DNA from: a virus | Strand: one strand, 5' to 3' | IMG/VR virus record: IMGVR_UViG_3300008954_000093 | Span: 1-43,101 of that record | Length of the DNA: 43,101 bases | Shown: one piece after another, positions 1 through 39,600 of the stretch | Layout: each line of letters begins with the position of its first letter | How positions within the stretch are numbered: the first letter of the stretch is position 1 | Made by a program: the position numbers and the translations under genes | Notes under the pieces: model-generated | The model's database searches: none | What the model was told of the DNA's origin: nothing | Seen by the model: the letters and a program-made list of their open reading frames with translations, nothing else

Positions 1-538
1 TTCTGCACCAGTCATCCCAGTTCACCTGAAGGGTGAACATCTGCTCATCCCATTGCACGACATTTTCTGGCGCAACTTCGATGGTGTCGAATGATCGCCC
101 AACAATCTCTACTGCGATACCAGATGGGTGGGTTCCAGACTCCTGAACGGACGGCTCCCGCAACCCGAACAGGCACCTGTCGGCCTCATGCACGCCGTCG
201 TCGTCCGTGATTGGCCCCCACGACCAGTCCAATGTCTCCAACTCGAACGCTGGGAAGCGGTACTTGCCGCAACTACAAGGTGCAGCCTGTAACTTTTCGT
301 CTGTTCCACAAGGTGCAGCCTGTACATCCACATCCTGAGATGTACTACCCGCTTCGCTGACATTGCCAATCAGCCACGGGGCCACCCGGTCGAACAGCCG
401 TTTCAAGCCGGGCAGGAACCGTGGCCGGTCAGATTCAACCATTTCCACGAAGTCGTCCCACGCCTCTGGCCCTACGCCAATAGCAGCATCGGGCTCGCAA
501 TAACAAATCTCCCCACAGATGGTGCAACCAACACTCAT
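1..538 (-). CDS. Cys-rich hypothetical protein, C-terminal part cut by window edge
   Basis: An open frame of 179 codons starts at ATG 538-536 and runs off the window at base 1 without a stop. A strong Shine-Dalgarno (GGAGGG, 543-548) sits just upstream and supports the start. The N-terminus has Cys at residues 5, 8, 12 and 14, which suggests a small metal site. The middle contains a short internal repeat, QAAPC twice, encoded by a 17-bp direct repeat at 275-291 and 308-324. I do not recognise the family. The frame is in register with the partial frame 42875-43101 if the window is closed into a circle, which would give a 254-residue protein. That join is inference. Confidence 0.65.
   Translation of the reverse strand, partial: MSVGCTICGEICYCEPDAAIGVGPEAWDDFVEMVESDRPRFLPGLKRLFDRVAPWLIGNVSEAGSTSQDVDVQAAPCGTDEKLQAAPCSCGKYRFPAFELETLDWSWGPITDDDGVHEADRCLFGLREPSVQESGTHPSGIAVEIVGRSFDTIEVAPENVVQWDEQMFTLQVNWDDWCR
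275..324. repeat. 17-bp direct repeat, 33-bp period
   Basis: The sequence acaaggtgcagcctgta occurs at 275-291 and again at 308-324. The 33-bp period keeps frame, so the encoded protein carries QAAPC twice. It looks like a small local duplication inside a coding region. Confidence 0.7.
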
Positions 539-634: not shown

Positions 635-640
635 ATAGCA

Positions 641-1376
641 GCCACGCTGCCTAACCACGCCTGCCACGCCTCTCCTCTCCTCGCCCTGCCGTAACATGCC
701 ATGCCTTTCCTGCCACGCCTCACCGATCCCGGCCACGCCTAACCGATCCTACCCTACCGCACCGTTCCTAGCGTCGCCTCGCCTCTCCATGCCTGACCGC
801 GCCGCACCAGACCGCGCCGCACCTAGCCCGACCGTGTCACGCCATGCCTGCCCAACCCCGCCATGCCGTACCGCTCCATGCCGAGCCTTGCCGAACCCTG
901 CCTGCCGTGCCGGACCAAACCCTGCCTCACCAAACGCAACGAGGCCAAACCTAACCGATCCTGCCTTGCCGTGCCTTACGCTTCCGGAACGCGCCAAGCC
1001 CAACCGTGCCTGCCTTACCTCGCCGCTCCCAGCCTCACCGCGCTGCGCCCAGCCTCACCGATCCATGCCTGCGATGCCCAACCATACCTTGACCAGCCTA
1101 ACCAATCCCAACCACACCGAGCCTGCCGTGCCTAACCAGACCCCACCCAACTCTGCCGCGCCGCGCCTAGCCCGCCTGACCGCGCCTGCCGTGCTAAACC
1201 TGACCGCGCCATGCCGAACCGGGCCGCGCCGTGACGAGCCTGTCCTAGCCTGCGCTGCCGAACCCAACCAGACCTTGCCTAAACACGCCGAACCGTGCCT
1301 AGCCTGCCGCGCTATCCGTGCCTTAACATGCCGAACCGGGCCTGTCCTTGCTTGACCCAGACTGCCGTGTCTAACC
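641..1376. repeat. degenerate pentanucleotide tract (NNNCC)n
   Basis: For about 735 bp the plus strand is built from five-base units ending in CC. From 861 to 902 nine CC dinucleotides fall at exact 5-bp steps. After a one-base slip the series continues at 905, 910, 915, 920, 925 and 930. Occasional 4- or 6-base units shift the phase elsewhere. The three variable bases are mostly from ATG, GTG, TTG, GAA, TAA, GAC, CGC and CAA. The minus strand therefore reads (GGNNN)n. The tract begins after the small leftward frame at 548-634 and ends inside the last codons of the AP2-like gene (stop 1371-1373). It opens long frames in several registers because 5 and 3 are coprime and CC-rich units rarely form stops. 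I do not regard those as genes. Confidence 0.9.
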
Positions 1377-1763
1377 TATTAGATATCCATCCTTACCGTA
1401 TCGGTCGTGGATATCATTGAAATCTTCTTCTGCGATGGTTCTATCTACACCTTTGCCAAACCAAGTTGCAGCCTTGCTGGCCTGTTCCATTCGCTTAACA
1501 AGATTAGACCTAGCCACAATGATCTCTTTGAGTTGTTCGATCACAGGATCGTAAACACCTTGAGAAATAAAGTGCTTTAACGTTTCAACGCTAGGCAACT
1601 TCCGCTTCGGCGGGGGCTTAGGAGGGTTGAGTTCTTCCCACTTGTCCAAAGCCGCGTGCGCTCCAGCCTTCGCTGCGGTCGCTTGGGCTTGAGTTTGATA
1701 ATAACCCAAGTGAATGTCTTTATTCTTATGTCGGATTTTAGCCCGAACAGCGTTTCTACTCAC
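1371..1763 (-). CDS. AP2-like DNA-binding domain protein
   Basis: A protein of about 130 residues whose N-terminal third resembles the AP2/ERF DNA-binding fold: a basic beta-strand stretch (AKIRHKNKD), the LGYY turn, then an Ala-rich helix (AQATAAKAGAHAAL). Phages often carry this domain, alone or joined to HNH nucleases. No HNH motif follows here. The C-terminal half is helical and unrecognised. I chose GTG at 1763 because GAGAGGAG lies 8 bases upstream. An in-frame TTG at 1781 would overlap the previous stop and has no ribosome site. It is the last gene of the lysin-methyltransferase operon, 14 bases after the methyltransferase stop. Its own stop lies inside the (NNNCC)n tract. Confidence 0.7.
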   Translation of the reverse strand: MSRNAVRAKIRHKNKDIHLGYYQTQAQATAAKAGAHAALDKWEELNPPKPPPKRKLPSVETLKHFISQGVYDPVIEQLKEIIVARSNLVKRMEQASKAATWFGKGVDRTIAEEDFNDIHDRYGKDGYLIG

Positions 1764-1777
1764 TAATACTCCTCTCT

Positions 1778-2506
1778 TCAACCCGCCATGATATCAGATG
1801 CTTCTGCTCTTAGCAATGGTTTCTCAAAGACTAGCAATGACTCATGAGGTATTCGTTGATTGAAGTTCTCTCCATGTGTTAAACCCGTAACAGGAATAAT
1901 GATCGTATCGACCTGCTTGAATCCGACACGGACACAGGTATCGCTATGCCATTTTGTTACATGTTGAATTACTCCACCCCGAACGTGGTCTTTGATGTTG
2001 ATGATCAAAATTCCACCGGGTTTTAGGACACGCTTTGCTTCCGACCATGCTTCTGTGTGGAAATGTTGGTAGTCCTCGCCCCATTGCATGACAGCAGAAC
2101 TTCCATCTGTGAGAGGTCTGCCCAAATAATGCCTGTAGGTGTGTCGTTTGCTGTCGTCTTTAGCGTCGTGGTGGTCGGCCATCCTGTTACCGAAGCAGGG
2201 CGAGGTTATGACTGCGTCGAAACACCCATTTGGGAATTTGGTGTTGAGGGCGCTTCCTACGTCTGTTAGTTGATGCTGGTTTGCCCATTCTGGTTCAAGT
2301 TCGATGCCCCGTGTGGTGAATGGCAGTTCGTGGATTGTGCCTATACCGGCGAAAGGATCCAAAATTGAAACGTCATTACCGGGTCCATAGAGGTCTTCAA
2401 GGATTTCGGTGATTGCGTTCAGATGTCTAGGGGTGAACTTCGCTGGATGGGGAGCGGGCAGCGGATAATCGGCGTCGGTATCTACTGCGTTGGGATCGTA
2501 ACTCAT
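1778..2506 (-). CDS. DNA methyltransferase (N6-adenine or N4-cytosine type)
   Basis: The 242-residue protein shows the SAM-binding motif I, DPFAGIGT (residues 50-57), followed by a motif IV-like segment TSPCFGNR (101-108). Motif I before motif IV places it in the alpha/gamma order of exocyclic-amino methyltransferases. The catalytic segment is SPCF instead of the usual (D/S)PP(Y/F), so the second Pro is replaced by Cys. Phage methyltransferases of this kind usually protect DNA from host restriction, and no cognate endonuclease is next to it. It overlaps the upstream 64-residue gene by 4 bases (ATGA), so the two are probably translationally coupled. Target base and site cannot be read from sequence. 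Confidence 0.85.
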   Translation of the reverse strand: MSYDPNAVDTDADYPLPAPHPAKFTPRHLNAITEILEDLYGPGNDVSILDPFAGIGTIHELPFTTRGIELEPEWANQHQLTDVGSALNTKFPNGCFDAVITSPCFGNRMADHHDAKDDSKRHTYRHYLGRPLTDGSSAVMQWGEDYQHFHTEAWSEAKRVLKPGGILIINIKDHVRGGVIQHVTKWHSDTCVRVGFKQVDTIIIPVTGLTHGENFNQRIPHESLLVFEKPLLRAEASDIMAG

Positions 2507-2697: not shown

Positions 2698-3631
2698 GTG
2701 CGGTTCCTCCCCAGCACGCTTTTGACGGGTTCCAGTGGGAATCCCCGCTCCTATAGAACAGCCATGCTGCTACGGCAACATTTGGCTCAGTATCGAATAT
2801 GTCATAGCCGCGCCATCCGGCAGCGGTGCTTCTGTCCAACCAGAATTTGCTTAGATGTTGGAACCATCCTACGGCCAGAGCCGACGAGACAGAGTTTGAA
2901 TAGGAGTCTGAGGGTAGCCCACTGGATTCACAAAAGGCAACCTTGAGTGCCCATTCCCTGTCTTCTGGTAGGAAATAGATGTCAACCAACTCTTGCAACG
3001 TGGGAGGTTCTTCCCAGTTCATCCAGTTGTGCTGCCAATCTATTTCTGGATCGTGGGTTTCTACCCACCAGTTGCTCCGGTTGTAGAAGTATCTCTGGGC
3101 CGCTTCTGTGGAACCGAACCATTCCATGTGGATTTTGCGGGTATCGGGTCCATAGATGCCGTCTACATATCGCATCCCCAGTAGGCGCTGCAATTCTGCG
3201 ATGTGGGAACCCTTCTCGTAGAAGCCGTATTGGTTGTCGATGAGGAAGGGGATCGAATCAAAAGAACCGCCGGGAGGATAGGACTCATACCAAATGTCGC
3301 TTGCTGAACCAGCGGGAGGCAATGAGGCTTCATACGTTTTGTTCGGGTTGGCGAAATTGGTGTTGTTCGGGTTGGCGAAATTGGTGGAGTGGCGTGGTTC
3401 GACCGCTTTGTGAACAATCGTCGTAGTAGTCGTACTGGTCGTAGTCGTCGTCGTGGTAGTCGTACTGGTCGTCGTCGTACTTATGGCAAATAGTAGTTCT
3501 GGATTAACGTTTGTTGTCGCTGCACGCGCCATGGGATGATCAGACGGTGATGCATTGTTGATGTGGGCCTGAGAAACCAAAGCAGCACAAATGAAAGCGA
3601 TCCCGATTTTGAGTATTCTGGGTAGCGGCAT
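2690..3631 (-). CDS. secreted lysin: PG-binding-like plus transglycosylase-like domain
   Basis: A 313-residue cell-wall hydrolase. Residues 1-27 form a signal peptide (positive start, hydrophobic IGIAFICAALV core). Residues 51-72 are almost pure Thr, a flexible linker, followed by an exact 24-bp tandem repeat (TNFANPN twice, 3339-3386). Residues 135-172 resemble a peptidoglycan-binding domain (LQRLLG, then DGIYGPDT). Residues 220-310 resemble lysozyme/transglycosylase domains of actinobacterial secreted proteins: probable catalytic Glu235 in AFCESSG, then GWFQH and a closing W/C-rich stretch. A start at 3631 is supported by GGAGGG eight bases upstream. It leads the leftward operon lysin, small protein, methyltransferase, AP2. 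An N-terminal signal means it may act from outside the membrane without a holin, or be a virion or host-envelope factor. Assignment to endolysin is inference. Confidence 0.8.
   Translation of the reverse strand: MPLPRILKIGIAFICAALVSQAHINNASPSDHPMARAATTNVNPELLFAISTTTTSTTTTTTTTTSTTTTTIVHKAVEPRHSTNFANPNNTNFANPNKTYEASLPPAGSASDIWYESYPPGGSFDSIPFLIDNQYGFYEKGSHIAELQRLLGMRYVDGIYGPDTRKIHMEWFGSTEAAQRYFYNRSNWWVETHDPEIDWQHNWMNWEEPPTLQELVDIYFLPEDREWALKVAFCESSGLPSDSYSNSVSSALAVGWFQHLSKFWLDRSTAAGWRGYDIFDTEPNVAVAAWLFYRSGDSHWNPSKACWGGTAHG
3339..3386. repeat. 24-bp perfect tandem duplication in the lysin linker
   Basis: Two identical 24-bp units (3339-3362 and 3363-3386) encode TNFANPN-type repeats next to the poly-Thr linker. 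The poly-Thr stretch itself (about 3418-3482) is a low-complexity run of ACN codons. Both suggest slippage-driven linker-length variation. Confidence 0.85.
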
Positions 3632-11707: not shown

Positions 11708-12218
11708 ATGCGTCTGGCGTAGGCGGTCGCTCTATACTGAAATCTTCACTGGCCGTGGATTCGATAGGGATCCACGCCTTGCTGTAAGAATGCTCTGAAA
11801 CTTTCCTCTTCTTGACGAGGGATCCATCCAGCAGCACATCCAGTTCATCTATTTTCATATTGAATGAATTCAAGATGACCTGTTCGTCCATGGCTACGCT
11901 CAATAGACGAATCGTTTTACTGAGACGATGTGGGACAATCTCTCCTCTGGCCCTGTTGAGTTGGATGTGAAGCATCATTGCTTCTGTCTTTCCACAATCG
12001 CGCCTTTGAACGGGAATCTTTTTAAGACCCAGCGACTGTGCGGCGACCCAGCGGGCGAAACCGTCGATGATGGTGCCATCTGTCATAGTGAGAATTGGAT
12101 TGATCATTCCGTATTCTTCTATAGACTTCATCAGCCCAATCAGGTTGGGTTTTAGAATATGAGTGGTTCTCCAGTCGGGAACCTTGAGGTTTTCCGTTTT
12201 GAGAAGTTCCAAGTTCAT
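11706..12218 (-). CDS. ParB/sulfiredoxin-fold protein (IbrB/YbdM-like)
   Basis: A 170-residue protein with a ParB N-terminal-like domain: LKPNLIGLMKSIEEYGMINPI, then TIIDGFARWVAAQSLGLKKIPV. The usual G(E/N)xR turn is replaced by DGFARW. It overlaps the upstream PAPS-reductase-like gene by 4 bases (ATGA). That pairing mirrors the known IbrA/IbrB and YbdN/YbdM couples, in which a PAPS-reductase-like protein and a ParB-like protein are encoded together. ParB-fold domains can hydrolyse nucleoside triphosphates. A role in chromosome partition is unlikely, because no ParA is present. The pair may modify nucleic acid or act in regulation; this is inference. Confidence 0.75.
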   Translation of the reverse strand: MNLELLKTENLKVPDWRTTHILKPNLIGLMKSIEEYGMINPILTMTDGTIIDGFARWVAAQSLGLKKIPVQRRDCGKTEAMMLHIQLNRARGEIVPHRLSKTIRLLSVAMDEQVILNSFNMKIDELDVLLDGSLVKKRKVSEHSYSKAWIPIESTASEDFSIERPPTPDA

Positions 12219-13369
12219 AAAAGATCATCTACCTTATCTAAGTCGTCGGCTTCCTGTAAGGCAGCGACGCGCATCCTGTGGGCTTTCGTTTTCGGACCGA
12301 CCGGTGATGGGGCTGTATGGCGAAATTCATTTAGCAGCAGTATCCGAATCAAGTGATCAATCGGATAGCCATAGGGATCGTTATTACGCTTTTTGCGAAA
12401 TTCTGCTACGAATTTCATAGCGTCTTGGTGTTTTCCCGGTGAAAGCATGTTCTCGTTGATGCAACGACGAACGCCGTCCCAACTTTCCTGAGCGTAAGAA
12501 GCAATCAGGGATTCGATATTGAAATCCTTCCACAGCCGACGCTGGGCATCTATGTGTGGAAATGCCGTCACTAGAGCGTCATAAAACTCTGGCTCCGTTG
12601 TAACTACATCATTGAGCCTGCGAGCAGCAACAGAGTGTAACGGAATTCCCACCCGTGTGTTTGCTCCCGACATTGCTGCGTAGTCGTAATACTCGCAATA
12701 GGGGAAGTTGTTGTCCACGGATACATACTTGAGAACATCGTCTGTAATCCAATCGTAAATAGGTTTGATGAGTCGCAACGGAATGGCCTTGCTCAGCCGG
12801 TATGGACGATTGATGTAGTTCTCATGGAGTTTTTGGACAACGGACCGATATCGAATCATGGATTCGTTTGCCCGAATACCCGTGAGGAAGGCGGTTCGAC
12901 CTTCCTTCCCTTGCATCGTGTAATAATCAACAGGCTGCGGAACCACCACGCTATTATCTAGTCCGAAATCTTGGGCGGTGATAGCCCACGGGGGTATCTC
13001 CCGAACCAAGCGTCCTTCTTCTTGTCGCTGTTTTGACCAGAGCAGAACGTACTCTCTGCGACCAAGCACCCAAATTTCCTGCCCCATCGGCAGGCAGTAC
13101 CACTCCATGTCAACCCACGGAAGATCTTTGACCCATTCCATGTAACGGATAACGGCAGGACTGACCATTTCTTCATCACGGAAGATGGTCTTGACGGGTC
13201 CAAGTCCTCGTTCTTCATGGATTTCTTTCGCAAGAAGTAGGACGGCAGAAGAATCTTTGCCTCCGCTGAACTGGACACAAACCGTGTCGAAAGTATCGTA
13301 AACGTGTCGGAGCCGTTCACGGGCTGCTTCGACTACGTTCATATCTAGGAATAGACGCTTACGCGGCAT
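12215..13369 (-). CDS. PAPS-reductase-like PP-loop ATPase (DUF3440/IbrA-like)
   Basis: A 384-residue protein with the PP-loop SGGKDS (residues 35-40), which binds ATP and adenylates a substrate. A long C-terminal region follows, with a Cys/Tyr-rich core (FPYCEYYDYAA) and segments typical of the DUF3440 branch of the PAPS reductase superfamily. Real PAPS reductases carry a C-terminal Cys motif that I do not see, so sulfate reduction is unlikely. Relatives modify nucleobases or DNA backbone, or act as regulators. It is translationally coupled to the ParB-like gene downstream. Its own ribosome site is poor; a 12-codon leader peptide with a strong site ends 9 bases before the start and may feed ribosomes to it. 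Confidence 0.8.
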   Translation of the reverse strand: MPRKRLFLDMNVVEAARERLRHVYDTFDTVCVQFSGGKDSSAVLLLAKEIHEERGLGPVKTIFRDEEMVSPAVIRYMEWVKDLPWVDMEWYCLPMGQEIWVLGRREYVLLWSKQRQEEGRLVREIPPWAITAQDFGLDNSVVVPQPVDYYTMQGKEGRTAFLTGIRANESMIRYRSVVQKLHENYINRPYRLSKAIPLRLIKPIYDWITDDVLKYVSVDNNFPYCEYYDYAAMSGANTRVGIPLHSVAARRLNDVVTTEPEFYDALVTAFPHIDAQRRLWKDFNIESLIASYAQESWDGVRRCINENMLSPGKHQDAMKFVAEFRKKRNNDPYGYPIDHLIRILLLNEFRHTAPSPVGPKTKAHRMRVAALQEADDLDKVDDLL

Positions 13370-24330: not shown

Positions 24331-25677
24331 ATGCCTACATTGACTGTTATAGAAGATACAGATATTCAGTTTAAAACCCGTGCTGGTCAGGTCAATATTG
24401 ACAAAGCACAGGGCATTGTTGAATGTTTTGTCGCCGCGATTGGGAACAAGGATTCCGTGGGCGACATCATTATTCCGGGGGCGTTCAGTGGCTCATTGAA
24501 ACGTCGCAAGCCGCGTGTGGTTTGGGGACATAACTGGAATGAGCCAATCGGCAAAGTGTTGACGATTGAAGAGGTCAAGCCCAAGGACAGTCGGCTTCCG
24601 AAGAAGATGTTCGATGCTGGAGTAGGTGGCCTGTATGCACGGGTTCAGTTCAATTTGAACTCCCAGCGTGGCAAGGAAGCCTTTGCCAATGTTGCCTTTT
24701 TTGGCGATGAGCAGGAGTGGAGCATCGGCTACAAGACAATTGATGCCGATTATGACTCCACTCATCAGGCAAACGTTCTGAAAGAGGTGGAACTGTACGA
24801 GGTTTCGCCCGTCCTCCATGGAGCAAACCAGTTGACCGGCACGCTGTCCGTGAAGGACAACGAGGCGTCCGAGTGTGGCACAGAGGGGGAGTTGTGTACC
24901 GTCAAGAATTTGGCAGCGGATGAGGTTGAAGAAAAGGTCGATGAAGTCGATGAAGAGGTAACCGTATTTGCGTCATTGCTTGAGACGGCGGTTAAGGGAT
25001 CCTTCGATGACGAAGATGTCAAGTTGTGGGACTTTGACGCGGAGCAGGCTGCCGTCACTAAGGGTGACGAAGCGTGGGTTGTGAGTTACCACTACAACAA
25101 GGACAGTTCCGAGTTTCTGTTCGCTCAGCCCAAGGCTGCGGTTTTGGAAACTTTCGTTCGCGTGCTGGAGGAAACGGCATGTGGCTGCGAAAAGGAGGAA
25201 ACGGCATGTGGCTGCGAAAAGGTAGACGGATCGTGCGGCTGCACCCACGAAGAAAAGTCCTTAGAGGAAGATGTTGAGGTCAAGGCTGGTCGCAAGATTT
25301 CTTCTAGGAACATTCAAAAAATCTCTAACGCTATTGAAATTCTTCAGAGTGTTTGTAACGAGGTAATGCCATCTGAGGGTCCGTTGGAGCGGAAAGAACC
25401 TGTTGAACAAAAGGTTTTGATTCCGGGCACCTATTCAAATTACGAGGAGTCCATTCCGTTTGAGTGCGCTACGGAAGAAGAGATTGCTGATGTCGTAGAG
25501 GCATTGGTGAAAGTTGGGGTTCCAGTTCAATGTCCAACCCCAGAATCTGTTGCCTTGGGTTACAAGACCGTAGAGGTCTTGATGCCTGAAGGCGAAAATG
25601 AAAAAAAGAGCGTTGCCCGAATCATGGGTAAGGCTTTGCTACATATCGACTGGTTAGTTAACGAGCCTTCCCAATAG
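24331..25677 (+). CDS. HK97-type prohead protease (S78) with long Cys-rich extension
   Basis: A 448-residue protein. The N-terminal 165 residues form a typical prohead protease: DSVGDIIIPGAF, VVWGHNWNEPIGKV with His67, EWSIGYK with Ser131, and ELYEVSPVLHGA. It trims head proteins during assembly. The C-terminal 280 residues are an unusual acidic extension. It holds three CGC motifs (about 282-303), two of them from an exact 27-bp tandem repeat, a metal-binding-like arrangement. The extension may act as scaffold, since protease-scaffold fusions are known. It starts at ATG 24331 with GGAG upstream. Confidence 0.9.
   Translation: MPTLTVIEDTDIQFKTRAGQVNIDKAQGIVECFVAAIGNKDSVGDIIIPGAFSGSLKRRKPRVVWGHNWNEPIGKVLTIEEVKPKDSRLPKKMFDAGVGGLYARVQFNLNSQRGKEAFANVAFFGDEQEWSIGYKTIDADYDSTHQANVLKEVELYEVSPVLHGANQLTGTLSVKDNEASECGTEGELCTVKNLAADEVEEKVDEVDEEVTVFASLLETAVKGSFDDEDVKLWDFDAEQAAVTKGDEAWVVSYHYNKDSSEFLFAQPKAAVLETFVRVLEETACGCEKEETACGCEKVDGSCGCTHEEKSLEEDVEVKAGRKISSRNIQKISNAIEILQSVCNEVMPSEGPLERKEPVEQKVLIPGTYSNYEESIPFECATEEEIADVVEALVKVGVPVQCPTPESVALGYKTVEVLMPEGENEKKSVARIMGKALLHIDWLVNEPSQ
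25168..25221. repeat. 27-bp perfect tandem duplication encoding CGC motif
   Basis: Units 25168-25194 and 25195-25221 are identical and encode EETACGCEK twice. A diverged third CGC motif follows. Perfect identity points to a recent duplication that multiplied a CxC metal-binding-like motif. Confidence 0.95.
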
Positions 25678-27576: not shown

Positions 27577-30500
27577 ATGAGTGATAAGCCTCTTGAGGTC
27601 AAAGGGCCGCAGGACTTAATCGACGTAATCCCGCAGGAGAGAATTACCGGCGATATTTTGCGTGGTCATGGACCGCGTAGAGGTGGGTTGGAACACCTGC
27701 TCAAATTCTGGCGACCGATTATGCGGAAGCCGGGTGGTTTTCGGCGGTGCATTGTCATTCTTGCGAATCATCCAGAGTTGTATCCGCTCCAACCGTTGTG
27801 CGCGTGGTTGCACCATGAAACAACTGGCAAGTGGCCGAATGAAGGCAACCATCACGGTGGTGGTGGGGCGGCGCGGGCAGCAGGCCGGGTGGCCCGTCGC
27901 GCTATCCCCGGCAAGCGTCGTCGCCGTCGTGGCAAAAGCGAAGACGGGGTGGAGATAGCAAGTTGGAGGGTGTACCGCCGAGTGGCCCGCATGGACGGAG
28001 GTATCACGACTCGTCCTATTGATGGGGATCAAAATGCTGTCGCCTATAAGGCGGCACGGTTTGTGCAGGGTCTGCAATCGGTTCCAATGCCGGGTTCGTT
28101 CGACTGGACTAAACAACCAATTGAGGTAAAGGGCCGTGGTCACGGTCGCCTTGGGCGGACGCTTTCAAGTATCGCTTCTTATTTTACACCGGGCGATATG
28201 AGCAAATATCGCAGTCCGATCCGCTCCGCCCTGTGGGGGGCTTTGTTCCCCGGCGGTGGAGGTATTGGACCGAGTGGTGGCATTGGTGGTGGTGGCGCTA
28301 GGCCGTCTATTGGCGGTGGGGCGCTGCGTTGTCCCACGGGGTACATCAACGGTGGCAGGTTCACTGATCCCAAGTTGAGCAACTGTGGTGGTTTGGTGTT
28401 TGACGTTCCGGCAAAGGGGCCGGGAGCGGTCACATCAGGTGATGTTTCCAAGATGACTCGTCGTTTTGAAAGCATTACGGCAGAGGACGTTCCAGATGTG
28501 GTTCGTGATGTGGTTGTCAAGAAGCCTAAGGGCGATCCTTTCGCCGTTGTACGCGAAGCGGCGATTCGTCCTAATCGTGCAGGTAGCCCTGCCCGCCGCG
28601 AGTCTGTTGTAAATGATGTTGTTGATTTTGTTGGCAAGAATGTTGGAACCACTCGTTTGGTTCGGCGTGACGGTGTGGTGTATGAACCCACGCTGACTCC
28701 AGAAGAACTAGTGAAGATGAAGGATCATGACGCGATCAAGGGTGCCGTGTATGTGACTTCAAAGATCGGGAAGGGTGCAATCGCAGGAGACGAGATACGC
28801 CTATTGAGCAAGGGTGTTGAGGCTATTGAGTATGCGTTCGGTCAGGGTTCTGTCCGGGTGGAACGCAAGACGGACATTCCGGTTGGGGTTGGAGCAAAGA
28901 TGCGTACCCGCTGGGCGTCTATTTCTAGGGATCCCGACATCATCATCAATCCGTTTGCCCATGTTGAAAAGTTCGTTCAAGAATTTCCAGAGTTTGTGGA
29001 AATCAAACCAAAGTTTGACGGTGTCAAAAAGCCGAACGAGCGCGTTGTCGTTACTTCTAGTGATGGTCAGAAGCGTGTGGTTTCAAGATGGATTCATCAC
29101 ATGTTTCTGTCACCTCGCGCTCCTCGTCGTCTGGCGGGCGTCAAGCCTTACAACATTGCAAAAGAATCTGGAACTAAAACTCTGCGTGAGCAACGGTTCA
29201 ACCGTGAGCAGTATGCAGTGTTTTCTGTGGAGAAAAAGAATCTGGCGTTGAGGCCGGATCTTTCCGATCAGTTCGGAAAGCCGAGTTTGGCAGACCTTCG
29301 GATTAGCGACACCGATGGTATGAGCAGAGATTCGCTAGTTGATCTAAAGGCAGCCCGGTTTGTATTAGCCCAACTTGATGAAGATATGGCAGTCAAGGTG
29401 TTTGGTCGCCGTCGGATGCGTGGCGTGCGTCTGTCTCGCTTTGCCCGCCGGATTCCCAAGGTTGTTCCTTACAACCCACGGGCACGGGATGCTGATGGTG
29501 ATGGTCTGGTTCAGGAAGGAACTATCTGGGAGCGACCGTCGGGAACTATTTTCCGTGGTTTGAAGGCTGGCGCTAGGAAACTGGCTGGTTCTGTTCAACT
29601 TGTTGATGGAAATGGCAAGAATGTTGATTACAAGCCGGGTGAAAACCAGCGTTCTCCGCTTCGGACTTCCCGCTTTGATCCTCTGAAGCGTCGTTTGGCG
29701 GGAGCGTCTGAACGTTTTGGTGGACGACGCGAACAGGGCATTCGTCGCAGGGATCAGGAGTTGGATGCTACAGCCGACTTCACTGAGGTCGAATTGCGGC
29801 GTCAGGCACGAAAGGCACGCAGGCAGCGGGCACTTGCAAGGATTAGACAGAGGGGGGCTGGTGTCCGTGAGCGTCGGACAGCGCGAATGGAGCGTGGCGC
29901 TGAGCGAGATGAGGCTGCCGCAGGGAGACATACTGAACGGGCTAGGGAACTGACTAGTCAACGACGCGACCGTGACGAGTTCGATAGGTCACGGCGGGAT
30001 ATGCGCGGTAGGCAGCGTGCTGAACGAGAAGAACTTGATCGGCGTTCTCCGCGTCGTGAACGCAGGACGCAGCGTCGTGATGAACGCCGTCGGAGGATGC
30101 AGGAGAGACTTACTGAATTTGGGGAGCGGAACGAGGAGGCCATCCGTCGTCGTGACCGTGAGGAGGGGGCGAGGGTTGACTTCGGGAGGCGTCGTCCAAG
30201 TATTGCGGAGCGTGCTGCTGCCGCGGCTGAACGCTTCCGTGAACGCAGAGAAGAAGGTATCCGTGCCGAAGATCGTCGTCGTGGCGCTAGGGCAGATTTT
30301 GGGAAGTTGGATCGGGAACGTGAGAGTCGTCGCAGGGATCGTCGCGGCCCAACGAGGAGGAGCGAGAGGACTCCGGGGGAGCAGCGCGGTCGGGCGGCTG
30401 GCGCAGCAGACAGGCTCAGGGAGCGTAACGAGGAAGCGATTCGTCGTCGGGATCGTGAACAAGGTGCGCGAGCCGACTTTGGCATTTTGGAACGCGAGCG

Positions 30501-33500
30501 TGAAGCCAGACGACAGCGACGCGCTGAGCGTGGCGCGCAGCGTGGCCGTGGTTTGGCAGAGGCAACTGAAAGGTTTAGGGAGCGGAACGAGGAAGCAATT
30601 CGTCGTAGGGACCGGCGAGAAGGAGCGCGAGCCGACTTCCAGATTTTGGAACGTGAACGTAAAGCCCGTGCGGATGCCCGTGTTAAGCGAGAATTGGATC
30701 GACAAGCGGTTCGTGATCAGCGTCGGGAACGGATTCGTCGCCGGGTTGAAACGTTCGGAGAGCGCCAAGAAGCAGCGATCAGGCTGAGGGATCGGGAGGA
30801 AGGAGCGCGAGCCGATTTCACTGAGATCGAATTGCGGCGCGAGATGCGGCGTCAACGGGTCCGTGATTTTGCCCGTCGGGTCAGAGAAATCAATGCTGAT
30901 AGGACTCCTGAAACCCGCGAGGTGGGCAGGAAAGCGGCAAGGGCTAGGAACGACCGGTCGGCAGGGGTGTCTAGAAGGTTCGATGAAATCCGTGTTAGGC
31001 AGGAATCGTTGCGTGGGATGCCGAGTTCCGATAGATACTACGAACCGGATGATGATCCAGAGTTCCAGCGTGACTTTGAGCGCACTTTGGAACGCTTCTA
31101 TGTAGATATGCAAGATTACACGCTTGTAGATCTTGGCGACGCGCTTTCAAATGCTGGTAACCGTCAATTGGAGGAGGCTTTCGACTGGGAAGACCCGGAA
31201 GTTGACGCACGACTTGAGACGCCGATCAGGGACTTTCCTGAAGATTGGAAAGCAACAATTAGGGGTATTGTCGAAAACTCCTTCTATGACGACCCCGAAG
31301 CGCTTATGGGTCAACGTCGGTCACGAAGAAATATGTTTGGGCAAACGCTCCAGAGTCTGGGGAGCGACAAGGAGCCTGTTATTAGTTGGACAGCGAGGAT
31401 TGAGGAGATCGACGCTCTTATTACAGAGTTGAACGATGTGTTCTTCGACAAGTATTGGGATTTGGATGCGGACGGGTACAACATTACGTCTGGCGTTTAT
31501 ATGGATAGCCGATTCGGGGATCGGATATCTCAGGGTGGCGGGAATGCAGTCGGGCGCAAATATGACGAATTGATTGCTGAACGTGAAGCACTTTTCGATA
31601 AGCGTTGGATGTTGACCGATGAGGAGGAAGCGAGGATTTATGAAATTAGTGGTGAAATCGAAGCGTTATATGCAGAGACAGACTGGATGGGCGTATCAGA
31701 TGTACATCGTGAACGGTTTGAGGCGATACGAGCGAGGCTTGATGAACTAGATCGACCGATAGTGTTGGATAGAGGGATGATTCAGGGGATGCCCTCTGTC
31801 AATGAGATGGTTCGATCTGAAGAGATTTTTGAGAGGGCGAAGGAGCGGCGTGAACGTTTGAGGGACATTCGGAGACGAGTCAAAGCGGGCGAAGAAGTAG
31901 ATCCAGCAGAAATATTTAATGAACCGGTTCGGGGTGTTCCCGTTGTCAACGAATGGCAGGAATCACTAGAGGACAGGATAAGTGGAATTTCTGCACAGGA
32001 GCGCGTGAAGGCTAGGCGTGAACGTTTGGAGGCCATTCGGGAACGTCGCATTGCGGAGGCAAAAGCCAGAGATGCAGACTTCGATCCAGATGATATTGAT
32101 CCAGACGAATGGCATGACGAAGGCTCTCCGGCGGGTGGCATATTTGATTTGGATCAGCAGATTCGGGGGATGCCTTCTGTCGAAGAGATGGTTCGGGCTG
32201 AAGAGATGCATGAGAGGGCAATGGCGCGGCGTGAACGTTTGAGGGACATTCGGAAACGAAAGGAAGCGGAGGCTAGAGAAGTTAGGGATGCTGGTGTATC
32301 GCCTGCGCTTGTCGGTCAGCCGATACAGAACTTGGTGCCGACGCCAAACGATTCGGATCTTCCCGGTGAAGATGTTCTGATTCGGTATCGGCAGGGCGAT
32401 GAGGTCAAGATTGGAAACCGCTGGGGCACGGTGGTTCGCAGCGATCCGGGTGGCGGTGGTCGCGGACCCTTCTATGTAGTCCAATTTGAAGATGGACATA
32501 GCGAATCTTTCCCCATGTATCGGGTGACGGGGGATTCGGACTTGAGGCGCAAGCGTCGTGCTGAAGGAGTTGAACGACACTTTTACCCAGATGGGGCGAT
32601 ACCAGTTGAAGATTTCACTTCACAGGGACTAATTGACGAAATGGCGATGATTAAGGAAAGGTGGGATGGCGCAGATGTCATCCCAGTCGAAGACATGATT
32701 CGTTTCGACAACCTGCAAATTGCGTGGCATGAGAAGAATCCCGGCAAGGATTTAGGATCGGTTCGCAATAGTCGGGGTTATCCCGTTGATGTTGAGTCTG
32801 TTGAATATGGTGATGGAACGAGGGCTGATTTCGGTAGCAGCGGTGTAGGTGGCGACCTGAACTCCCAAATGGTTCGGGGGATGCCTTCGGTAGAACGAAT
32901 CTTGAGTGCGCCTCCCGACAGGTTCGATCCAGAGATTGATATTGATCCTGACACATACCACGATGATCCGCTTCGTCCGGGTCGGGATGAGCGGATTGTT
33001 AGGAGTTTGTCTGCTGCGGTAGATAAGTGGTTGGGCGAAGATTATTTTGATGCTTTTGAAGATCATGAACTTGAAAAAGCAATGAGTGATGCCATATTGC
33101 TGATTAGGGCAAAGAATGGTGGAGATCTCAAGTTTGCTGACTTCATTGAACCTAGTGCAAATTGGCCGGAAGGCTTCCTACATGCCGAACTTGGGGCAGA
33201 GGAAATGTTCACTAGGGAAGGAATTGAAAAGGGATTGCTGGCTGGCGTGTATGACGGCGACATTCCTGAGGGAGTTTTGCTTGAACTGCAAAATGATCAT
33301 GGTTGGAATCGTGATCCGGTTGAACGAGTTTCGGCCATAGTTGAGGCCATGTTGTTTCATCGTGAAGATATGGACAACCCGGAAGTTTTCCAAGAGAACT
33401 TGACGGCGATGTTGGACAATCTTTCGGTATGGGACGGCATGATGAACCGTTACGAACTAAACAAGTTGAATAATAGGGATCGTGATAGAGAGCCGTGGCA

Positions 33501-36117
33501 TGGTCGTCAACGCAAGATTCTTGTGAAGTTGACTCAACGATTTTTGAGTGATCGGAAGTCGGAAAACGAACGGCGACGCAAGGCTCTTACCGCACCGTTG
33601 GAAGATGCGTCGATGGAAAGAAGGTTTGATCCGGTTCCGGGTGAAGGCGAAGTAGATGTGCCCGAAGATGAACAAACGTTCTTGCAGAAGATTGTTGACA
33701 GGATTTGGAACAAGCGGCTCAAGGTTGTGAAAAAGGAATATGAGCGTCGCGGCAAGCCGCCGGAGACGATGCCTCGTTCCTTTGAAGAGTTGGGTATCAA
33801 TGTAGATGAGATTTTGGCTAGGGGTAGTACGACTCCAGAAGAAGATGAAATTATCAAGAAGTGGGTTATTTCAGCGTTTTCGTTGGGTGATGCCAATCAG
33901 TTTGCTGGAACAGATAGTTTCATGTGGCGGCTGCGAAACCAGTGGGGGAATGATGATGATGACATACCGAATATAACTATTCAGCAGACTGGGGGACAGA
34001 TCACTGCCAGTTTTAATGCTTCTATCGAATTTAAAGCCCCTAGAGACATTGAGGATCGCAATGGTCAAACAGTAAAGGGCGGCGAATGGGTTGCGAGCGG
34101 TAACACTGATCGGGTTATTACGATCAACAGAAGCAGGGGAGGTAATCCGCCAAAGATTCATGTTAAGAATAGTGAAATGTTTGTTGATACATACTCAACA
34201 TACGGTGTTAGAGGAAAAGGTTTCGCAACCTTCTATAACAGCAATACTTGGATACATGTCAACCAGTTGGGTGGACCTGATTCATATATTGGTGTTACTG
34301 CTGCTGATGATGGAAAGGTGGTTTGGGGTATACAGGGATTCAATGACCCTACTGTGGTTAAAACAGCGATGTCTAACATCCTCAAAGAATTGATTGCCTA
34401 TGAGACGGATCGTAAGCCCGGTTTGATTCGCAATGATCAAATGCACGAAGACTTGAAGAGGCTTTACAACATTCATTCCGCCAATGAAAACGACTCTCCT
34501 GTCACTCTTCAAATGATTCATCATGTTTTACGAGGGGGCGGCAAACATCCTTGGGAAGACATTGCACATACTGATGATCGTCCTTCTGGTATTAGCACAG
34601 ATGTGTTGTCTAGAGACAAGGATATTGATGCTATTGAAAAAGATCTATCCAAGAAGATTAACAAAGACGATCCCCTAGAAGCCGGGATGCTTAAAAACGC
34701 TTATGGCAATTGGTGGGCATCGAATGGACTCTTCGGCGGTGGAGATTTAGGTGTCGGGTCGGACGATCCTATCGGCAAGATTATGGCGGAGGCTGCTGAT
34801 GAAATTAGGGGTGGTCCGCCGGATGCTGATGTTGATACGCCGGATTCTCCACGACGACGGGATCGGGCAGCGGAGCGTAGGGCGAGAGGCAGAGGAGAGG
34901 AAGGACCAGCAGAAGTTCCTTTGTATAGGGGATTGAGGAGGGGGCGGTCGAACTTGACGATTGGCACTTCAGACGAACTGGGTCGTTCTGGGTTGGTTTC
35001 AACTTCGATGGAAGATAGCGACATCAAAACGCCCGCAGCCGCTGCTGAACATATTCGTAATGGAGGAAATATCTCTGATGTTCCTCGCGAGTTGATTCTG
35101 GAAGCAGCGTTGAAAAATTCCAGCGGAGACGAAAAAGACGAGTCAAAACTTTTCAGACTGGTGACCGTTGACGAAGATGGCAATCCCGGCGCGAACGTCA
35201 GTGGTGGCACTTTTGGTACATCGTATGTTTTCCTTAAGAGGGATCCAGACGGCAGGTCCGATAGTGAGCCGGGGACGGAACAAGGATTTATTATCAAAAG
35301 CCCGGACTATGCATTTGAAACGCCCGGAAGCGACGGGGGAGGCATTGCAAATGTCAGCCAATACAACGAGATTATTGGACGACAGATAAGTCAATTGCTT
35401 GGAGATCCGACCGGTGGCGTGATGGTAGATGGAGAAGACCCACGGGGTAATCCTTATATCGTTATGGAGTTCAATAATGTAACTGCGGATATCGGACTTG
35501 AAATCCCTCTAGCACATATGAGTTTTGAGGAGCGCAACGAACCGGAAATGTTGAAGTCTCGCCTTAGGGCTTTACTGATCGGTTACAGCATGGGTCTGGG
35601 AGATAGGCACGGCGGCAACTTGTTGGTTGGTCAGAGCGAATACACGGGCGGAACAAACCAGACAGGCGTGACCAATATCGACTTCCAGCGGGCTTGGGGA
35701 GCGACAACAGATCTTCGTGGTTACATAGATGGGCATATGGCTGAAGGCAGCGGTTTCCCCGGATTTGGATTGCTTAGTGAATTGCGACAGGCGGTTAGGG
35801 AGGGCAAGTTGAGCGAATCAGAGTTGGGGGGAGTAGTTCAGGAAGTCCATGATCAGATGAGAAACATCAAAGATGTTCACTTGGAAAGAATCTTTGGGGA
35901 TCTTCCCGAAGTCCACGCTTTGGGTGGGCGAGACATGTCAACTATGGGTGCTGCTCGTCGTGGGCCGGACGATGTGGAGACTCACGCGACGAACGTTAGC
36001 AACCATCTGGAGATGACATTAGCCACCCTTTCCGGTGGAGAAATGCTAGTGATGGAACTTTTGGAAAATGATGAAGATGAAGAACCATGGTATGGGGAAG
36101 GGCAGCGGACGTTCTAA
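27577..36117 (+). CDS. giant polyvalent-type protein with C-terminal PI3/4K-like kinase
   Basis: A single 2846-codon frame, started at ATG 27577 behind AGGGAG. Regions in order: a basic N-terminal domain (PGGFRRCIVIL, LCAWLHHETTGKWP); a Gly-rich stretch; CPTGYINGGRFTD...NCGG (about 251-270); a Ca-loop-like module DADGDGLVQEGT (638-649); six Arg-rich repeats (about 713-1095); five GMPSV-like motifs; an SH3-like segment (about 1600-1652); a possible GNAT-like segment (about 2185-2257, RGKGFA); an ADP-ribosyltransferase-like piece (LYRGL with Arg2451, STS at 2475-2477, no clear ExE); and a kinase-like domain with GDRHGGNL (Asp2676-Asn2681) and NIDF (2700-2703), as in PI3/4-kinases. It fits phage polyvalent proteins thought to be delivered with the genome. 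Delivery and targets are inference. Confidence 0.85.
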   Translation: MSDKPLEVKGPQDLIDVIPQERITGDILRGHGPRRGGLEHLLKFWRPIMRKPGGFRRCIVILANHPELYPLQPLCAWLHHETTGKWPNEGNHHGGGGAARAAGRVARRAIPGKRRRRRGKSEDGVEIASWRVYRRVARMDGGITTRPIDGDQNAVAYKAARFVQGLQSVPMPGSFDWTKQPIEVKGRGHGRLGRTLSSIASYFTPGDMSKYRSPIRSALWGALFPGGGGIGPSGGIGGGGARPSIGGGALRCPTGYINGGRFTDPKLSNCGGLVFDVPAKGPGAVTSGDVSKMTRRFESITAEDVPDVVRDVVVKKPKGDPFAVVREAAIRPNRAGSPARRESVVNDVVDFVGKNVGTTRLVRRDGVVYEPTLTPEELVKMKDHDAIKGAVYVTSKIGKGAIAGDEIRLLSKGVEAIEYAFGQGSVRVERKTDIPVGVGAKMRTRWASISRDPDIIINPFAHVEKFVQEFPEFVEIKPKFDGVKKPNERVVVTSSDGQKRVVSRWIHHMFLSPRAPRRLAGVKPYNIAKESGTKTLREQRFNREQYAVFSVEKKNLALRPDLSDQFGKPSLADLRISDTDGMSRDSLVDLKAARFVLAQLDEDMAVKVFGRRRMRGVRLSRFARRIPKVVPYNPRARDADGDGLVQEGTIWERPSGTIFRGLKAGARKLAGSVQLVDGNGKNVDYKPGENQRSPLRTSRFDPLKRRLAGASERFGGRREQGIRRRDQELDATADFTEVELRRQARKARRQRALARIRQRGAGVRERRTARMERGAERDEAAAGRHTERARELTSQRRDRDEFDRSRRDMRGRQRAEREELDRRSPRRERRTQRRDERRRRMQERLTEFGERNEEAIRRRDREEGARVDFGRRRPSIAERAAAAAERFRERREEGIRAEDRRRGARADFGKLDRERESRRRDRRGPTRRSERTPGEQRGRAAGAADRLRERNEEAIRRRDREQGARADFGILEREREARRQRRAERGAQRGRGLAEATERFRERNEEAIRRRDRREGARADFQILERERKARADARVKRELDRQAVRDQRRERIRRRVETFGERQEAAIRLRDREEGARADFTEIELRREMRRQRVRDFARRVREINADRTPETREVGRKAARARNDRSAGVSRRFDEIRVRQESLRGMPSSDRYYEPDDDPEFQRDFERTLERFYVDMQDYTLVDLGDALSNAGNRQLEEAFDWEDPEVDARLETPIRDFPEDWKATIRGIVENSFYDDPEALMGQRRSRRNMFGQTLQSLGSDKEPVISWTARIEEIDALITELNDVFFDKYWDLDADGYNITSGVYMDSRFGDRISQGGGNAVGRKYDELIAEREALFDKRWMLTDEEEARIYEISGEIEALYAETDWMGVSDVHRERFEAIRARLDELDRPIVLDRGMIQGMPSVNEMVRSEEIFERAKERRERLRDIRRRVKAGEEVDPAEIFNEPVRGVPVVNEWQESLEDRISGISAQERVKARRERLEAIRERRIAEAKARDADFDPDDIDPDEWHDEGSPAGGIFDLDQQIRGMPSVEEMVRAEEMHERAMARRERLRDIRKRKEAEAREVRDAGVSPALVGQPIQNLVPTPNDSDLPGEDVLIRYRQGDEVKIGNRWGTVVRSDPGGGGRGPFYVVQFEDGHSESFPMYRVTGDSDLRRKRRAEGVERHFYPDGAIPVEDFTSQGLIDEMAMIKERWDGADVIPVEDMIRFDNLQIAWHEKNPGKDLGSVRNSRGYPVDVESVEYGDGTRADFGSSGVGGDLNSQMVRGMPSVERILSAPPDRFDPEIDIDPDTYHDDPLRPGRDERIVRSLSAAVDKWLGEDYFDAFEDHELEKAMSDAILLIRAKNGGDLKFADFIEPSANWPEGFLHAELGAEEMFTREGIEKGLLAGVYDGDIPEGVLLELQNDHGWNRDPVERVSAIVEAMLFHREDMDNPEVFQENLTAMLDNLSVWDGMMNRYELNKLNNRDRDREPWHGRQRKILVKLTQRFLSDRKSENERRRKALTAPLEDASMERRFDPVPGEGEVDVPEDEQTFLQKIVDRIWNKRLKVVKKEYERRGKPPETMPRSFEELGINVDEILARGSTTPEEDEIIKKWVISAFSLGDANQFAGTDSFMWRLRNQWGNDDDDIPNITIQQTGGQITASFNASIEFKAPRDIEDRNGQTVKGGEWVASGNTDRVITINRSRGGNPPKIHVKNSEMFVDTYSTYGVRGKGFATFYNSNTWIHVNQLGGPDSYIGVTAADDGKVVWGIQGFNDPTVVKTAMSNILKELIAYETDRKPGLIRNDQMHEDLKRLYNIHSANENDSPVTLQMIHHVLRGGGKHPWEDIAHTDDRPSGISTDVLSRDKDIDAIEKDLSKKINKDDPLEAGMLKNAYGNWWASNGLFGGGDLGVGSDDPIGKIMAEAADEIRGGPPDADVDTPDSPRRRDRAAERRARGRGEEGPAEVPLYRGLRRGRSNLTIGTSDELGRSGLVSTSMEDSDIKTPAAAAEHIRNGGNISDVPRELILEAALKNSSGDEKDESKLFRLVTVDEDGNPGANVSGGTFGTSYVFLKRDPDGRSDSEPGTEQGFIIKSPDYAFETPGSDGGGIANVSQYNEIIGRQISQLLGDPTGGVMVDGEDPRGNPYIVMEFNNVTADIGLEIPLAHMSFEERNEPEMLKSRLRALLIGYSMGLGDRHGGNLLVGQSEYTGGTNQTGVTNIDFQRAWGATTDLRGYIDGHMAEGSGFPGFGLLSELRQAVREGKLSESELGGVVQEVHDQMRNIKDVHLERIFGDLPEVHALGGRDMSTMGAARRGPDDVETHATNVSNHLEMTLATLSGGEMLVMELLENDEDEEPWYGEGQRTF
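29712..30850 (+). repeat. six Arg-rich protein repeats in first giant
   Basis: A unit close to RFRERNEEAIRRRDREEGA followed by RADF recurs near 29712, 30116, 30229, 30412, 30569 and 30748. Each copy is followed by charged helix. The DNA copies are diverged, so the repeats are old or under codon-level drift. The segment is strongly basic and probably forms long single helices able to contact DNA or RNA. Confidence 0.85.
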
Positions 36118-36398: not shown

Positions 36399-36636
36399 TG
36401 TAAGTGCAGAGACGATTGGCAAGATGCAGAACTACATAGAGGCGCGCAATACGCCGGAGCGGTTGGGCATTGTCGAAATGGTGTCTCAGTATGTTCTATC
36501 CGATCTTCCTCCAGAAGAAGATAAAGAAGAGGCTTTGATTCTGTCGCGCTATCACCTGTCTACGGATAGGGGAACAGAAGATTTGAAAGCGTTGTATCCG
36601 GATGCTGTCAGTTGGATGGAGGAAGGCAATTCATGA
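36391..36636 (+). CDS. small acidic hypothetical protein between the giants
   Basis: An 81-residue helical, acidic protein that overlaps the previous gene by 8 bases and the second giant by 4 (ATGA). The tight coupling of both small genes with the giants suggests a common complex, for example chaperones or immunity partners for toxin-like domains. That is inference only. Confidence 0.6.
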   Translation: MGNVSAETIGKMQNYIEARNTPERLGIVEMVSQYVLSDLPPEEDKEEALILSRYHLSTDRGTEDLKALYPDAVSWMEEGNS

Positions 36637-39600
36637 GATATCCGGAATACCGTCTGAACGAGGTCGGTTTTCGCGCTCGTTTATATGATGTAAACCATAT
36701 CCCTCTTGAAAAAGGGATAGGGAGCATAATCAGACGCGTTCCGAAGGTGGTTCCGTATGACAACGATGCCCGTGATGCTGATGGCGATGGTCTAGTTCAA
36801 GAGGGGACAATCTGGGAGCGTCCTGCTGGTACCCGTTGGGTGAGCAAGTTGGGTAGCGCTCTTTCTTCTGGCTTGCGTGCCATTCCGGGTAACTCCAAGA
36901 TTGTGGATAAAGACGGCAACGATGTTGATTACAAGCCCGGAGATAAAGCACAGGGTGGACGGGCGAAACTTCGTGGTCTGTTGGCTCGTCGCCGGTTGCG
37001 TCGGGCAGGTAAACGTCGGCGTCGTGCAGCGGAAAGGCGCGAAGAGGACAGGGAGCGTAAGGCTCCTGAAGAATACGACAAGTTAATTGAAACTTTGGAA
37101 AACGCCGCTAATGCTGCAAGTCAAGAGCGGCTGATCGAAGCAGAGAAGCAGCGCGGCGATGCGCCGATGGACGGACCTTTCCGTTCATTCTGGGACACGT
37201 TCATGGAAGCGTTCACGGGCATGAAGGGGGGGAGGGAGGATCGCAATTCCCGTGACAAGGCGCGTGGTAGGAGCGCTATTCGCAAGGCTCTTCAGATGGA
37301 GGGAAACCGGCGGACGGCTGGCGACGAGAACGGTAATGAGCCTGATCATGACAGGGAAAAGGAGTTCGATGAGGAGGCATTAGACGGTAAGGGTGTGATG
37401 CCTTCTGCGATTGAAGAGCATCACAGGAAACTTAGAGAGGATCCTGAGTATCGCAAGCGGTGGAATCGTGCGTTGCGTGAGGGCAAGGTAGATCAGTTTA
37501 TTGAGAAGGAAGGTTTGAGGCCGATTCCCGATGGCGGGGATCGCGATCCCGACCGACCCCGACCCCGAATTGATCCCAAGCCACCAACGGATGCTCCAGA
37601 GGCCGGGAAGCCGTTGACTGATTTGACCGACGACGAGTTACAGGCTCGGATTGAGGCATTGCAAGACATCAATGATGACATGTCTCTGGATGATTTGTCA
37701 CCGGCACATCAGGCGGAGTTGGATGCGCTGTATGAGGAGCGTAATAACCGTTGGCTGCGGGGCGAGGGTCCGCGACCCCGCCGCCCAGAGCCGGATGATC
37801 CAGAGGCAGATGTTGAACCGGGGTTTGAATTACCCGATGAGGTAATCGAAAGCATTGAACATTACAGGGATACCGTACTGCCAGAATTGAGTGATCAAGA
37901 CTTGGCTCAAGAACTTGCTGAACTGCGAGAAGCGCTGAACGCTGATGATTTGGAGGACAGGTTCCCAAGAAATGATGGGCCTGAACGGTTTGCTTTGGCG
38001 TTGCAGGAGCATCGTCGTCGTCTTGTTCAGCAAAGGGAAGAGCGGAACAGCCCGGAAGCGATGATCGCCCTCGCTGACGCTGTATCTGAAGAGGATTTAG
38101 ACCAAGCGGTTGGGGGCGTACTGCCCCTACATCTTTACCCGCGGGACATGGTGGACAACCCACGTTCGGAAGAGGCGGTGAAGGCTTTCAATGAGAGGAT
38201 TCGTGAGCGTCTTGCGGAAAGGGATGAGGCTAGGGCGGCACGGGGTCTTCGTTGGAGTGACGAACGAATAACAGGTGCGTCCGATGAGGAATTGCAACGT
38301 CGTCGTGCAGAACTGGTTGCTTTGGATCCAGTTGGCAACGATTCGGCAATTAGGACAGAACTTGAACGGCTGGAGAGCGAACGGATTAGGCGTGAAGTAT
38401 TAGCGGGGATGCAGAGAGATCTAGATGAATATGAAGAATCTGACGACGATCTTCCGGGCGATGCGTTCTTCGATAACGAGGGTTGGATTGAAGGCGACTT
38501 CGCTTGGGACGATGATGCTATTGACGCCGCGATCAATGTTGCTCTTGCTACTGACGATACGAGGACTATAGAAGGAATAGAACGCTCGCTTCAAAGGTAT
38601 AAGTACGATATGACTACGAGCGAGTGGCGTGGCGCTAAGGGTCGTCGGCATCGGGAAATTCAAGCGATTTTGGATCGTAGGCGTGAGGAGAGGGAGCGTC
38701 CGACTAGGACGGTGCCGCCAAGGGACGTTGATCCCTATGGAGATGACGAATTCGGGTTTATGAGCGATGAAGATCTTCAACGCCATATAGATGATCTTGA
38801 GAATATTGAGGATCGCTCCCCGGATCAGGAGGCGCGTTTAGAGGCTTTGGGTAATGAGTATGACGAACGGTTTGGAACAGAAGCAGATGTTGAAGACATG
38901 GAGCGCGAGGAGCGGTTGGAATGGTACGAGACTGATCCTGCAAGTCTTTCCGATGAGGAACTTCAAACTGAAATCAATGAACTGAATTCTGAATCGGATT
39001 TGGACGACGATGCAATGGCGTGGTTGACCAAACTTTCTGAGGAGGATGACAGGCGGCAGAAAGCCCGAAATGAACAAGAGGATCAAGAAGCGGCAGAAGC
39101 GGAAGCGGCGGAGGAAGCCCGTCAGGCTGAACTAATTGAAGAGCAGCGAGATCCACGGGATATGACTCCTGAGGAAATGGCTGAAGAAATCAACGCCATT
39201 AACGAGGCTGATGAAGATGAGTTAAATGAGCATTGGGGTTCGTCTGAAGCGGCGATGGATCGTTACAACGTTTTGCAGGATGCGCTTAGTGAGCGCGAAG
39301 AGCAGGATGCTAGAGATCGTGATCAGGAAGAGATTGAGGATCGTATTGCTGAGCAGGATGATCCTACGGAGATGCGGGATGAGGACATCGGTGAAGAGAT
39401 GTCTGAACTGTTTGATATTTCCGAAGATGAAGATTACAACGAGGAAGCGCGGGCACAGGCTAGGCAGCGATGGGAGTTGTTGGCAGCCGAACAGGACAGG
39501 CGTGAACGGGAAAGAGAACAGGATGAACGGGATCTGTCGGATGCGTTAGACGAGCGGCAGGCTGAAGAGGATGCTGAGGAGGATCGCATCCGTGAAGCGG

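What the first reader, a model, noticed from the sequence alone, without database searches (positions are those of the whole stretch)
641..1376. 735-bp phase-locked (NNNCC)n tract with no coding explanation
CC recurs every 5 bp for about 140 units with only occasional 4- or 6-base slips; between 861 and 902 there are nine in perfect register. The minus strand is (GGNNN)n, so any leftward transcript or displaced strand can form stacked two-tier G-quadruplexes. The variable triplets are not random: ATG, GTG, TTG, GAA, TAA, GAC and CGC dominate. It is not a simple tandem repeat, and selection seems to keep only the CC spacing. Possible roles: replication or packaging landmark, transcription roadblock, decoy for a host GG-binding protein, or a hypervariable slippage element.
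Basis: partly seen in the sequence, partly recalled or inferred. Interest (0 to 1): 0.85.

Follow-up and report, generated by a model that had tools for sequence, protein, structure and literature searches.

The report
Long VIPR guide-RNA array in a phage
The odd 735-base stretch is almost certainly a string of about a dozen guide RNAs of the newly described VIPR system, a relative of CRISPR that viruses use against rival viruses; it is a real and striking feature, but the system itself was reported in 2026.

Summary
In detail: CC recurs every 5 bases far above chance (lag-5 count 102 versus 30 ± 5 in shuffles). Read on the other strand the tract is (GGYNN)n: GG and a pyrimidine are kept, the last two bases are almost free. 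This is the vrRNA signature of VIPR (Viral Interference Programmable Repeat; preprint PMC13142463, 2026). Searched blind in IMG/VR, the same spacing turns up in at least 73 phage contigs. A ~200-aa protein, PHROG 4652, lies within 1 kb and on the GG strand in 61 of them, and in 0 of 67 control loci. The vipr-like gene of phage SUSP1, where VIPR was characterised, belongs to that family (E 1.4e-96); a relative's predicted fold resembles Cas7-type RAMPs. The "slips" are regular: a 4-base unit GGCA/CGCA closes each block of about 10-13 units, giving about 12 guides here, and the same mark recurs in many other phages. Cluster F mycobacteriophages gain or lose whole GGCA-to-GGCA blocks. No vipr gene lies in the 43-kb window or its 67-kb twin; the contig breaks inside the next gene, which in another phage lies 0.8 kb upstream of vipr. 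No guide target was found. Verdict: new member of a known kind.

The parts
647..1376 (-). vrRNA-type array, (GGYNN)n, about 140 units in about 12 blocks; transcript would run leftward
638..651 (-). small hairpin GCAGC-GTG-GCTGC at the 3' end of the array, two units plus GGCAGC after the last GGCA; same position as the hairpin of the single vrRNA in L253
   Evidence: the window fold is not more stable than shuffles, z = +1.31
1363..1366 (-). first GGCA punctuation unit; the other 4-base marks begin at 1308, 1254, 1190, 1127, 1073, 1014, 965, 906, 852, 714 and 665 (minus strand, 5' base given)
1371..1781 (-). 136-aa protein P0001 whose stop codon lies in the first unit of the array; weak HNH-endonuclease-like N-terminus (phrog_24751, E 5e-5); neighbour, not shown to belong to VIPR
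2..538 (-). 179-aa start of gene P0002, cut by the contig end; 92% DNA identity to a gene in phage contig L253 that lies 0.8 kb upstream of a vipr gene

Best explanation
The tract is an array of about 12 overlapping or adjacent VIPR guide RNAs (vrRNAs), transcribed leftward. Each GGY is held by one subunit of a Vipr (RAMP, Cas7-like) protein filament, and the two free bases of each unit pair with DNA of a competing phage or satellite, skipping one target base per unit, which blocks transcription. A 4-base unit GGCA every 10-13 units marks the guide boundaries. Shown here: the sequence pattern, the block structure, the link of the same kind of array to the Vipr family in other phages, and a RAMP-like predicted fold. 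From the preprint: RNA binding, skip rule, repression. Inferred: that this phage uses a Vipr coded just beyond the contig end, and that GGCA is a boundary or processing mark.
For: GGYNN consensus in the window and in 5344 units of the other arrays plus this one: GG[C 68%/T 24%]NN, with 0.05 and 0.01 bits on NN. PHROG 4652-type proteins lie within 1 kb and on the GG strand in 61 of 73 such loci, median distance 16 bp, versus 0 of 67 control loci. SUSP1, the phage in which VIPR was characterised, carries at 28474-29061 a 195-aa gene beside intergenic (GGYNN) stretches that is PHROG 4652 (E 1.4e-96; E 2.5e-33 with my profile; hhalign probability 99.8). AlphaFold model pLDDT 87; the best PDB folds are Csm, Cmr and type VII CRISPR complex subunits. 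GGCA marks are regularly spaced in most loci that have six or more, and in the window. Cluster F mycobacteriophage arrays differ by whole GGCA-to-GGCA blocks.
Against: No vipr was found in the window or in the 67-kb twin contig. No target was found for five guides in IMG/VR or for any array segment in related phages. Foldseek E-values are weak (best 0.007) and the modelled protein lacked its first 22 residues. There are no expression data. GGY is fully intact in only 104 of 151 five-base units parsed (flanks included).
Confidence: 0.92

Rival explanations
1. Orphan array (a variant of the best explanation): the phage carries VIPR guides but no vipr of its own and borrows the Vipr of a co-resident prophage, satellite or helper, or the array is a relic.
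For: No vipr or phrog_15946 in 43 kb here or in the 67-kb twin record. Some other arrays with long flanks also lack a detectable vipr: L009, L020, L071, L094, L116.
Against: The contig ends inside P0002, and in L253 the P0002 homologue is followed 0.8 kb later by vipr, phrog_15946 and a vrRNA. Window and L253 are otherwise unrelated phages, so the shared gene may mark a transferred VIPR segment.
Confidence: 0.3
2. A protein-coding repeat: the 219-aa + strand ORF or a minus-strand ORF is translated.
For: Long ORFs overlap many tracts; annotators of Mycobacterium and Gordonia phages called CDSs on them.
Against: 4-base units shift the frame every ~11 units; some tracts overlap no ORF of 60 aa (L023, L048, L087, one of L123); gain and loss of 12-unit blocks (59 bases) changes frame.
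Confidence: 0.03
3. A DNA element acting through structure (G-quadruplex, half-turn CC phasing, packaging or replication landmark).
For: GG every 5 bases can form two-tier quadruplexes in principle; not tested.
Against: Does not explain the pairing with a RAMP-like protein on the GG strand, the pyrimidine after GG, the free NN pair, or the GGCA blocks.
Confidence: 0.03

Closest known systems
VIPR system of Escherichia phage SUSP1 (type II; PMC13142463)
   Same: GGY/NN pentanucleotide guide repeats; adjacent Vipr of PHROG 4652 in related loci; found in phages; intergenic
   Different: SUSP1 has separate ~100-nt vrRNAs each with its own tail; here one continuous run of about 140 units divided by GGCA marks; the accessory candidate in L253 and UmaThurman is phrog_15946, whereas SUSP1's neighbour gene is phrog_5926; no vipr seen in this contig
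VIPR 'staggered arrays with overlapping vrRNAs' (same preprint, fig. S18)
   Same: The text describes overlapping guides, which fits the window
   Different: Figure and supplement not readable here, so whether the GGCA mark was noted there is unknown
Class 1 CRISPR-Cas backbone (Cas7/Csm3)
   Same: RAMP-type fold of the partner protein; guide RNA with regularly skipped bases
   Different: No CRISPR repeats or cas genes; 5-nt rather than 6-nt period; gapped guide

Membership tests
VIPR | Guide RNA of tandem YNNGG (GGY/NN) repeats with hypervariable NN | tested here: met
VIPR | 9-16 repeats per vrRNA | tested here: inconclusive
   GGCA-delimited blocks of 10-13 units, one of 28, fit, but only if the marks bound the guides, which is not shown
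VIPR | Vipr RAMP gene beside the guides, in this genome | tested here: inconclusive
   absent from the 43-kb contig and its 67-kb twin; contig cut within the neighbouring gene; present beside 61 of 73 similar arrays and 0.8 kb from the same neighbour gene in L253
VIPR | The array-linked protein family is the same family as characterised Vipr | tested here: met
   SUSP1 28474-29061 is PHROG 4652; that this gene is the vipr of the preprint rests on its size and locus layout
VIPR | RAMP fold with glycine-rich loop | tested here: met
   in relatives only: model, folds (weak E-values), invariant glycines and near-invariant RP motif
VIPR | Invariable structured 3' tail | tested here: inconclusive
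   hairpin at 638-651, same place as in L253; not more stable than shuffles
VIPR | Targets follow the 1-nt skip rule | tested here: inconclusive
   no target found
VIPR | Array transcribed into small RNA that co-purifies with Vipr | not testable with these tools
   needs RNA-seq and pull-down
CRISPR array | Identical repeats separated by unique spacers, with cas genes | tested here: not met
   no constant repeat longer than GGY; the tandem-repeat finder shows only short imperfect units

The most novel reading that the evidence does not exclude
A punctuated VIPR array type: a 4-base GGCA unit acts as a boundary or processing mark that splits one long transcript into many guides, and GGCA-to-GGCA blocks are the units in which phages acquire and lose guides, a CRISPR-like turnover of memory without CRISPR repeats.
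Probability: 0.4. Interest if true: 0.8.

Novelty: new member of a known kind. Interest (0 to 1): 0.55.

Why it matters
It places a very long VIPR guide array in an uncultured phage and shows that the same architecture is common in phage metagenomes and present in cultured Mycobacterium and Gordonia phages, where it can be tested at the bench. The regular GGCA mark and block-wise turnover give a concrete handle on how these guides are delimited and renewed, which the main text of the preprint does not address.

Tried and rejected
Target search with 8- or 9-unit seeds (1-nt skip) for five window guides in IMG/VR: 16, 39, 0, 0 and 12 contigs. The first set lies in mixed codon phases; the second and the last are repeats of a few short matches that do not extend into the flanking units, about what chance gives. 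Array windows against related phages and the phage itself with skips of 0-3: no better than shuffled guides. Two cluster F guides against 396 mycobacterial genomes with up to 2 mismatches: 0 and 4 scattered matches, reversed-pattern control 1 and 1. Cellular genome contigs with the same spacing: mostly poly-C, simple repeats or GC-rich DNA. Plasmids: one weak match. Protein-coding and simple-repeat explanations rejected. A motif search for a divergent Vipr in the window and the twin contig found nothing.

Full report
OBSERVATION. The tract at 641-1376 is real and far beyond chance. CC at lag 5 occurs 102 times against 30.4 ± 4.7 in dinucleotide shuffles, with perfect runs of 12, 11 and 9 CCs. 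Parsed on the minus strand it reads (GGYNN)n from 1376 to about 647: each G of GG is kept in about 89% of units, the third base is C or T in 87%, and the last two bases carry 0.06 bits each.

WIDER OCCURRENCE. Most are long tracts with varied triplets. After filtering, 77 arrays in 73 contigs were kept. BLAST of the window tract found the same kind of tract in cultured Mycobacterium cluster F phages and Gordonia phage UmaThurman and one weak match in plasmids.

PARTNER PROTEIN. An all-against-all comparison of proteins near the tracts gave one family in 45 loci, nearly always close to the tract. With a profile, 61 of 73 loci have it, all within 1 kb and all on the GG strand, median distance 16 bp, against none of 67 control viral loci; the profile was trained on these loci, so the control is the test of specificity. 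One further locus, L102, starts inside what looks like a truncated copy. The family is PHROG 4652, of unknown function there. BobaPhett gp52, UmaThurman gp39 and Quico 57 belong to it and sit next to their arrays. The model of the L253 protein (pLDDT 87, first 22 residues missing through my choice of start) matches subunits of Csm, Cmr and type VII CRISPR complexes best, with weak E-values.

KNOWN SYSTEM. A literature search found the preprint that describes VIPR: a Vipr RAMP protein with vrRNAs of 9-16 YNNGG repeats that bind DNA by a one-base skip rule and repress rival phages. To test identity, the SUSP1 genome was fetched. Its gene at 28474-29061, near intergenic stretches that hold (GGYNN) repeats, is PHROG 4652 (E 1.4e-96) and matches my profile (E 2.5e-33; hhalign 99.8%). 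The array-linked family and Vipr are therefore one family, given that this SUSP1 gene, by size and layout, is the one in the preprint.

PUNCTUATION. The 4-base slips are mostly one word, GGCA (227 of about 320 tallied), and recur every 11 units (median), with less scatter than random placement in most loci with six or more marks. In the window 12 marks GGCA or CGCA lie 10-13 units apart, with one gap of 28 (p = 0.002). In L253, a phage contig with vipr, phrog_15946 and a single vrRNA, GGCA stands two units before the terminal hairpin; the window's last GGCA stands in the same place before GCAGC-GTG-GCTGC. SUSP1 vrRNAs, read by eye, lack the mark and are separate. Cluster F arrays are the cleanest: BobaPhett, James and Mattes have blocks 1-2-3-4-tail and ByChance has 1-2-4-tail; Donkeykong has about two more blocks than Zizzle; the tail block GGAAT GGCGG GGCTT GGCTG GGCAA is invariant. 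The ByChance loss could be ordinary recombination, since blocks 3 and 4 begin alike.

THE MISSING VIPR. No vipr or phrog_15946 is in the window or in the 67-kb contig that is identical over at least 9.8 kb and starts at the same base. Gene P0002 is cut at window base 2. Its 92%-identical homologue in L253 is full length and lies 0.8 kb upstream of vipr. L253 shares little else with the window phage, so P0002 is probably a recently transferred gene and may mark a transferred VIPR segment. I put about 60% on vipr lying just beyond the contig end; an orphan array is the main rival.

TARGETS. None found; see the field on failed attempts. This counts little against the identification, since the natural targets may be unsampled phages and the seeds demanded exact matches.

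VERDICT. It is a long guide array of the VIPR kind. The GGCA punctuation and block turnover are, as far as the readable text shows, additional to the preprint, but its supplement was not available to me.

Noticed in passing
L248, L320-L326, L250 (Mycobacterium phages), L249 (Gordonia phage UmaThurman): Clean GGCA-punctuated vrRNA-type arrays beside PHROG 4652 in cultured phages; deposited annotations place hypothetical CDSs on several arrays (BobaPhett gp51, UmaThurman gp40, Donkeykong gp48, DRBy19 gp51).
   Followed up: yes
window 2-538 and L253 1576-2334: Gene P0002 is 92% identical in DNA between otherwise unrelated phages, both times near VIPR parts: likely recent horizontal transfer.
   Followed up: partly
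L253 3808-4284, L249 3505-3927: phrog_15946 protein directly next to vipr or array in two different phages: candidate accessory (vap) protein.
   Followed up: partly
L080 7608-9162: 1.55-kb array of about 312 units with almost no 4-base marks: a different, unpunctuated array form.
   Followed up: no
L020, L071, L094, L116, L009: Arrays with long flanks and no detectable vipr: possible orphan arrays or divergent Vipr.
   Followed up: partly
L016, L072, L088, L115: A second Vipr-family match on the other side of the array.
   Followed up: no
window 27577-36117 and 36612-42878: Two giant ORFs (2846 and 2088 aa) with only a marginal or no PHROG match, downstream of portal and protease genes.
   Followed up: no
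window 12215-13369, 3339-3481, 25167-25222: PAPS-reductase-like moron gene; Thr-rich linker repeats in a putative secreted protein; a perfect 27-bp tandem repeat within the protease ORF.
   Followed up: no
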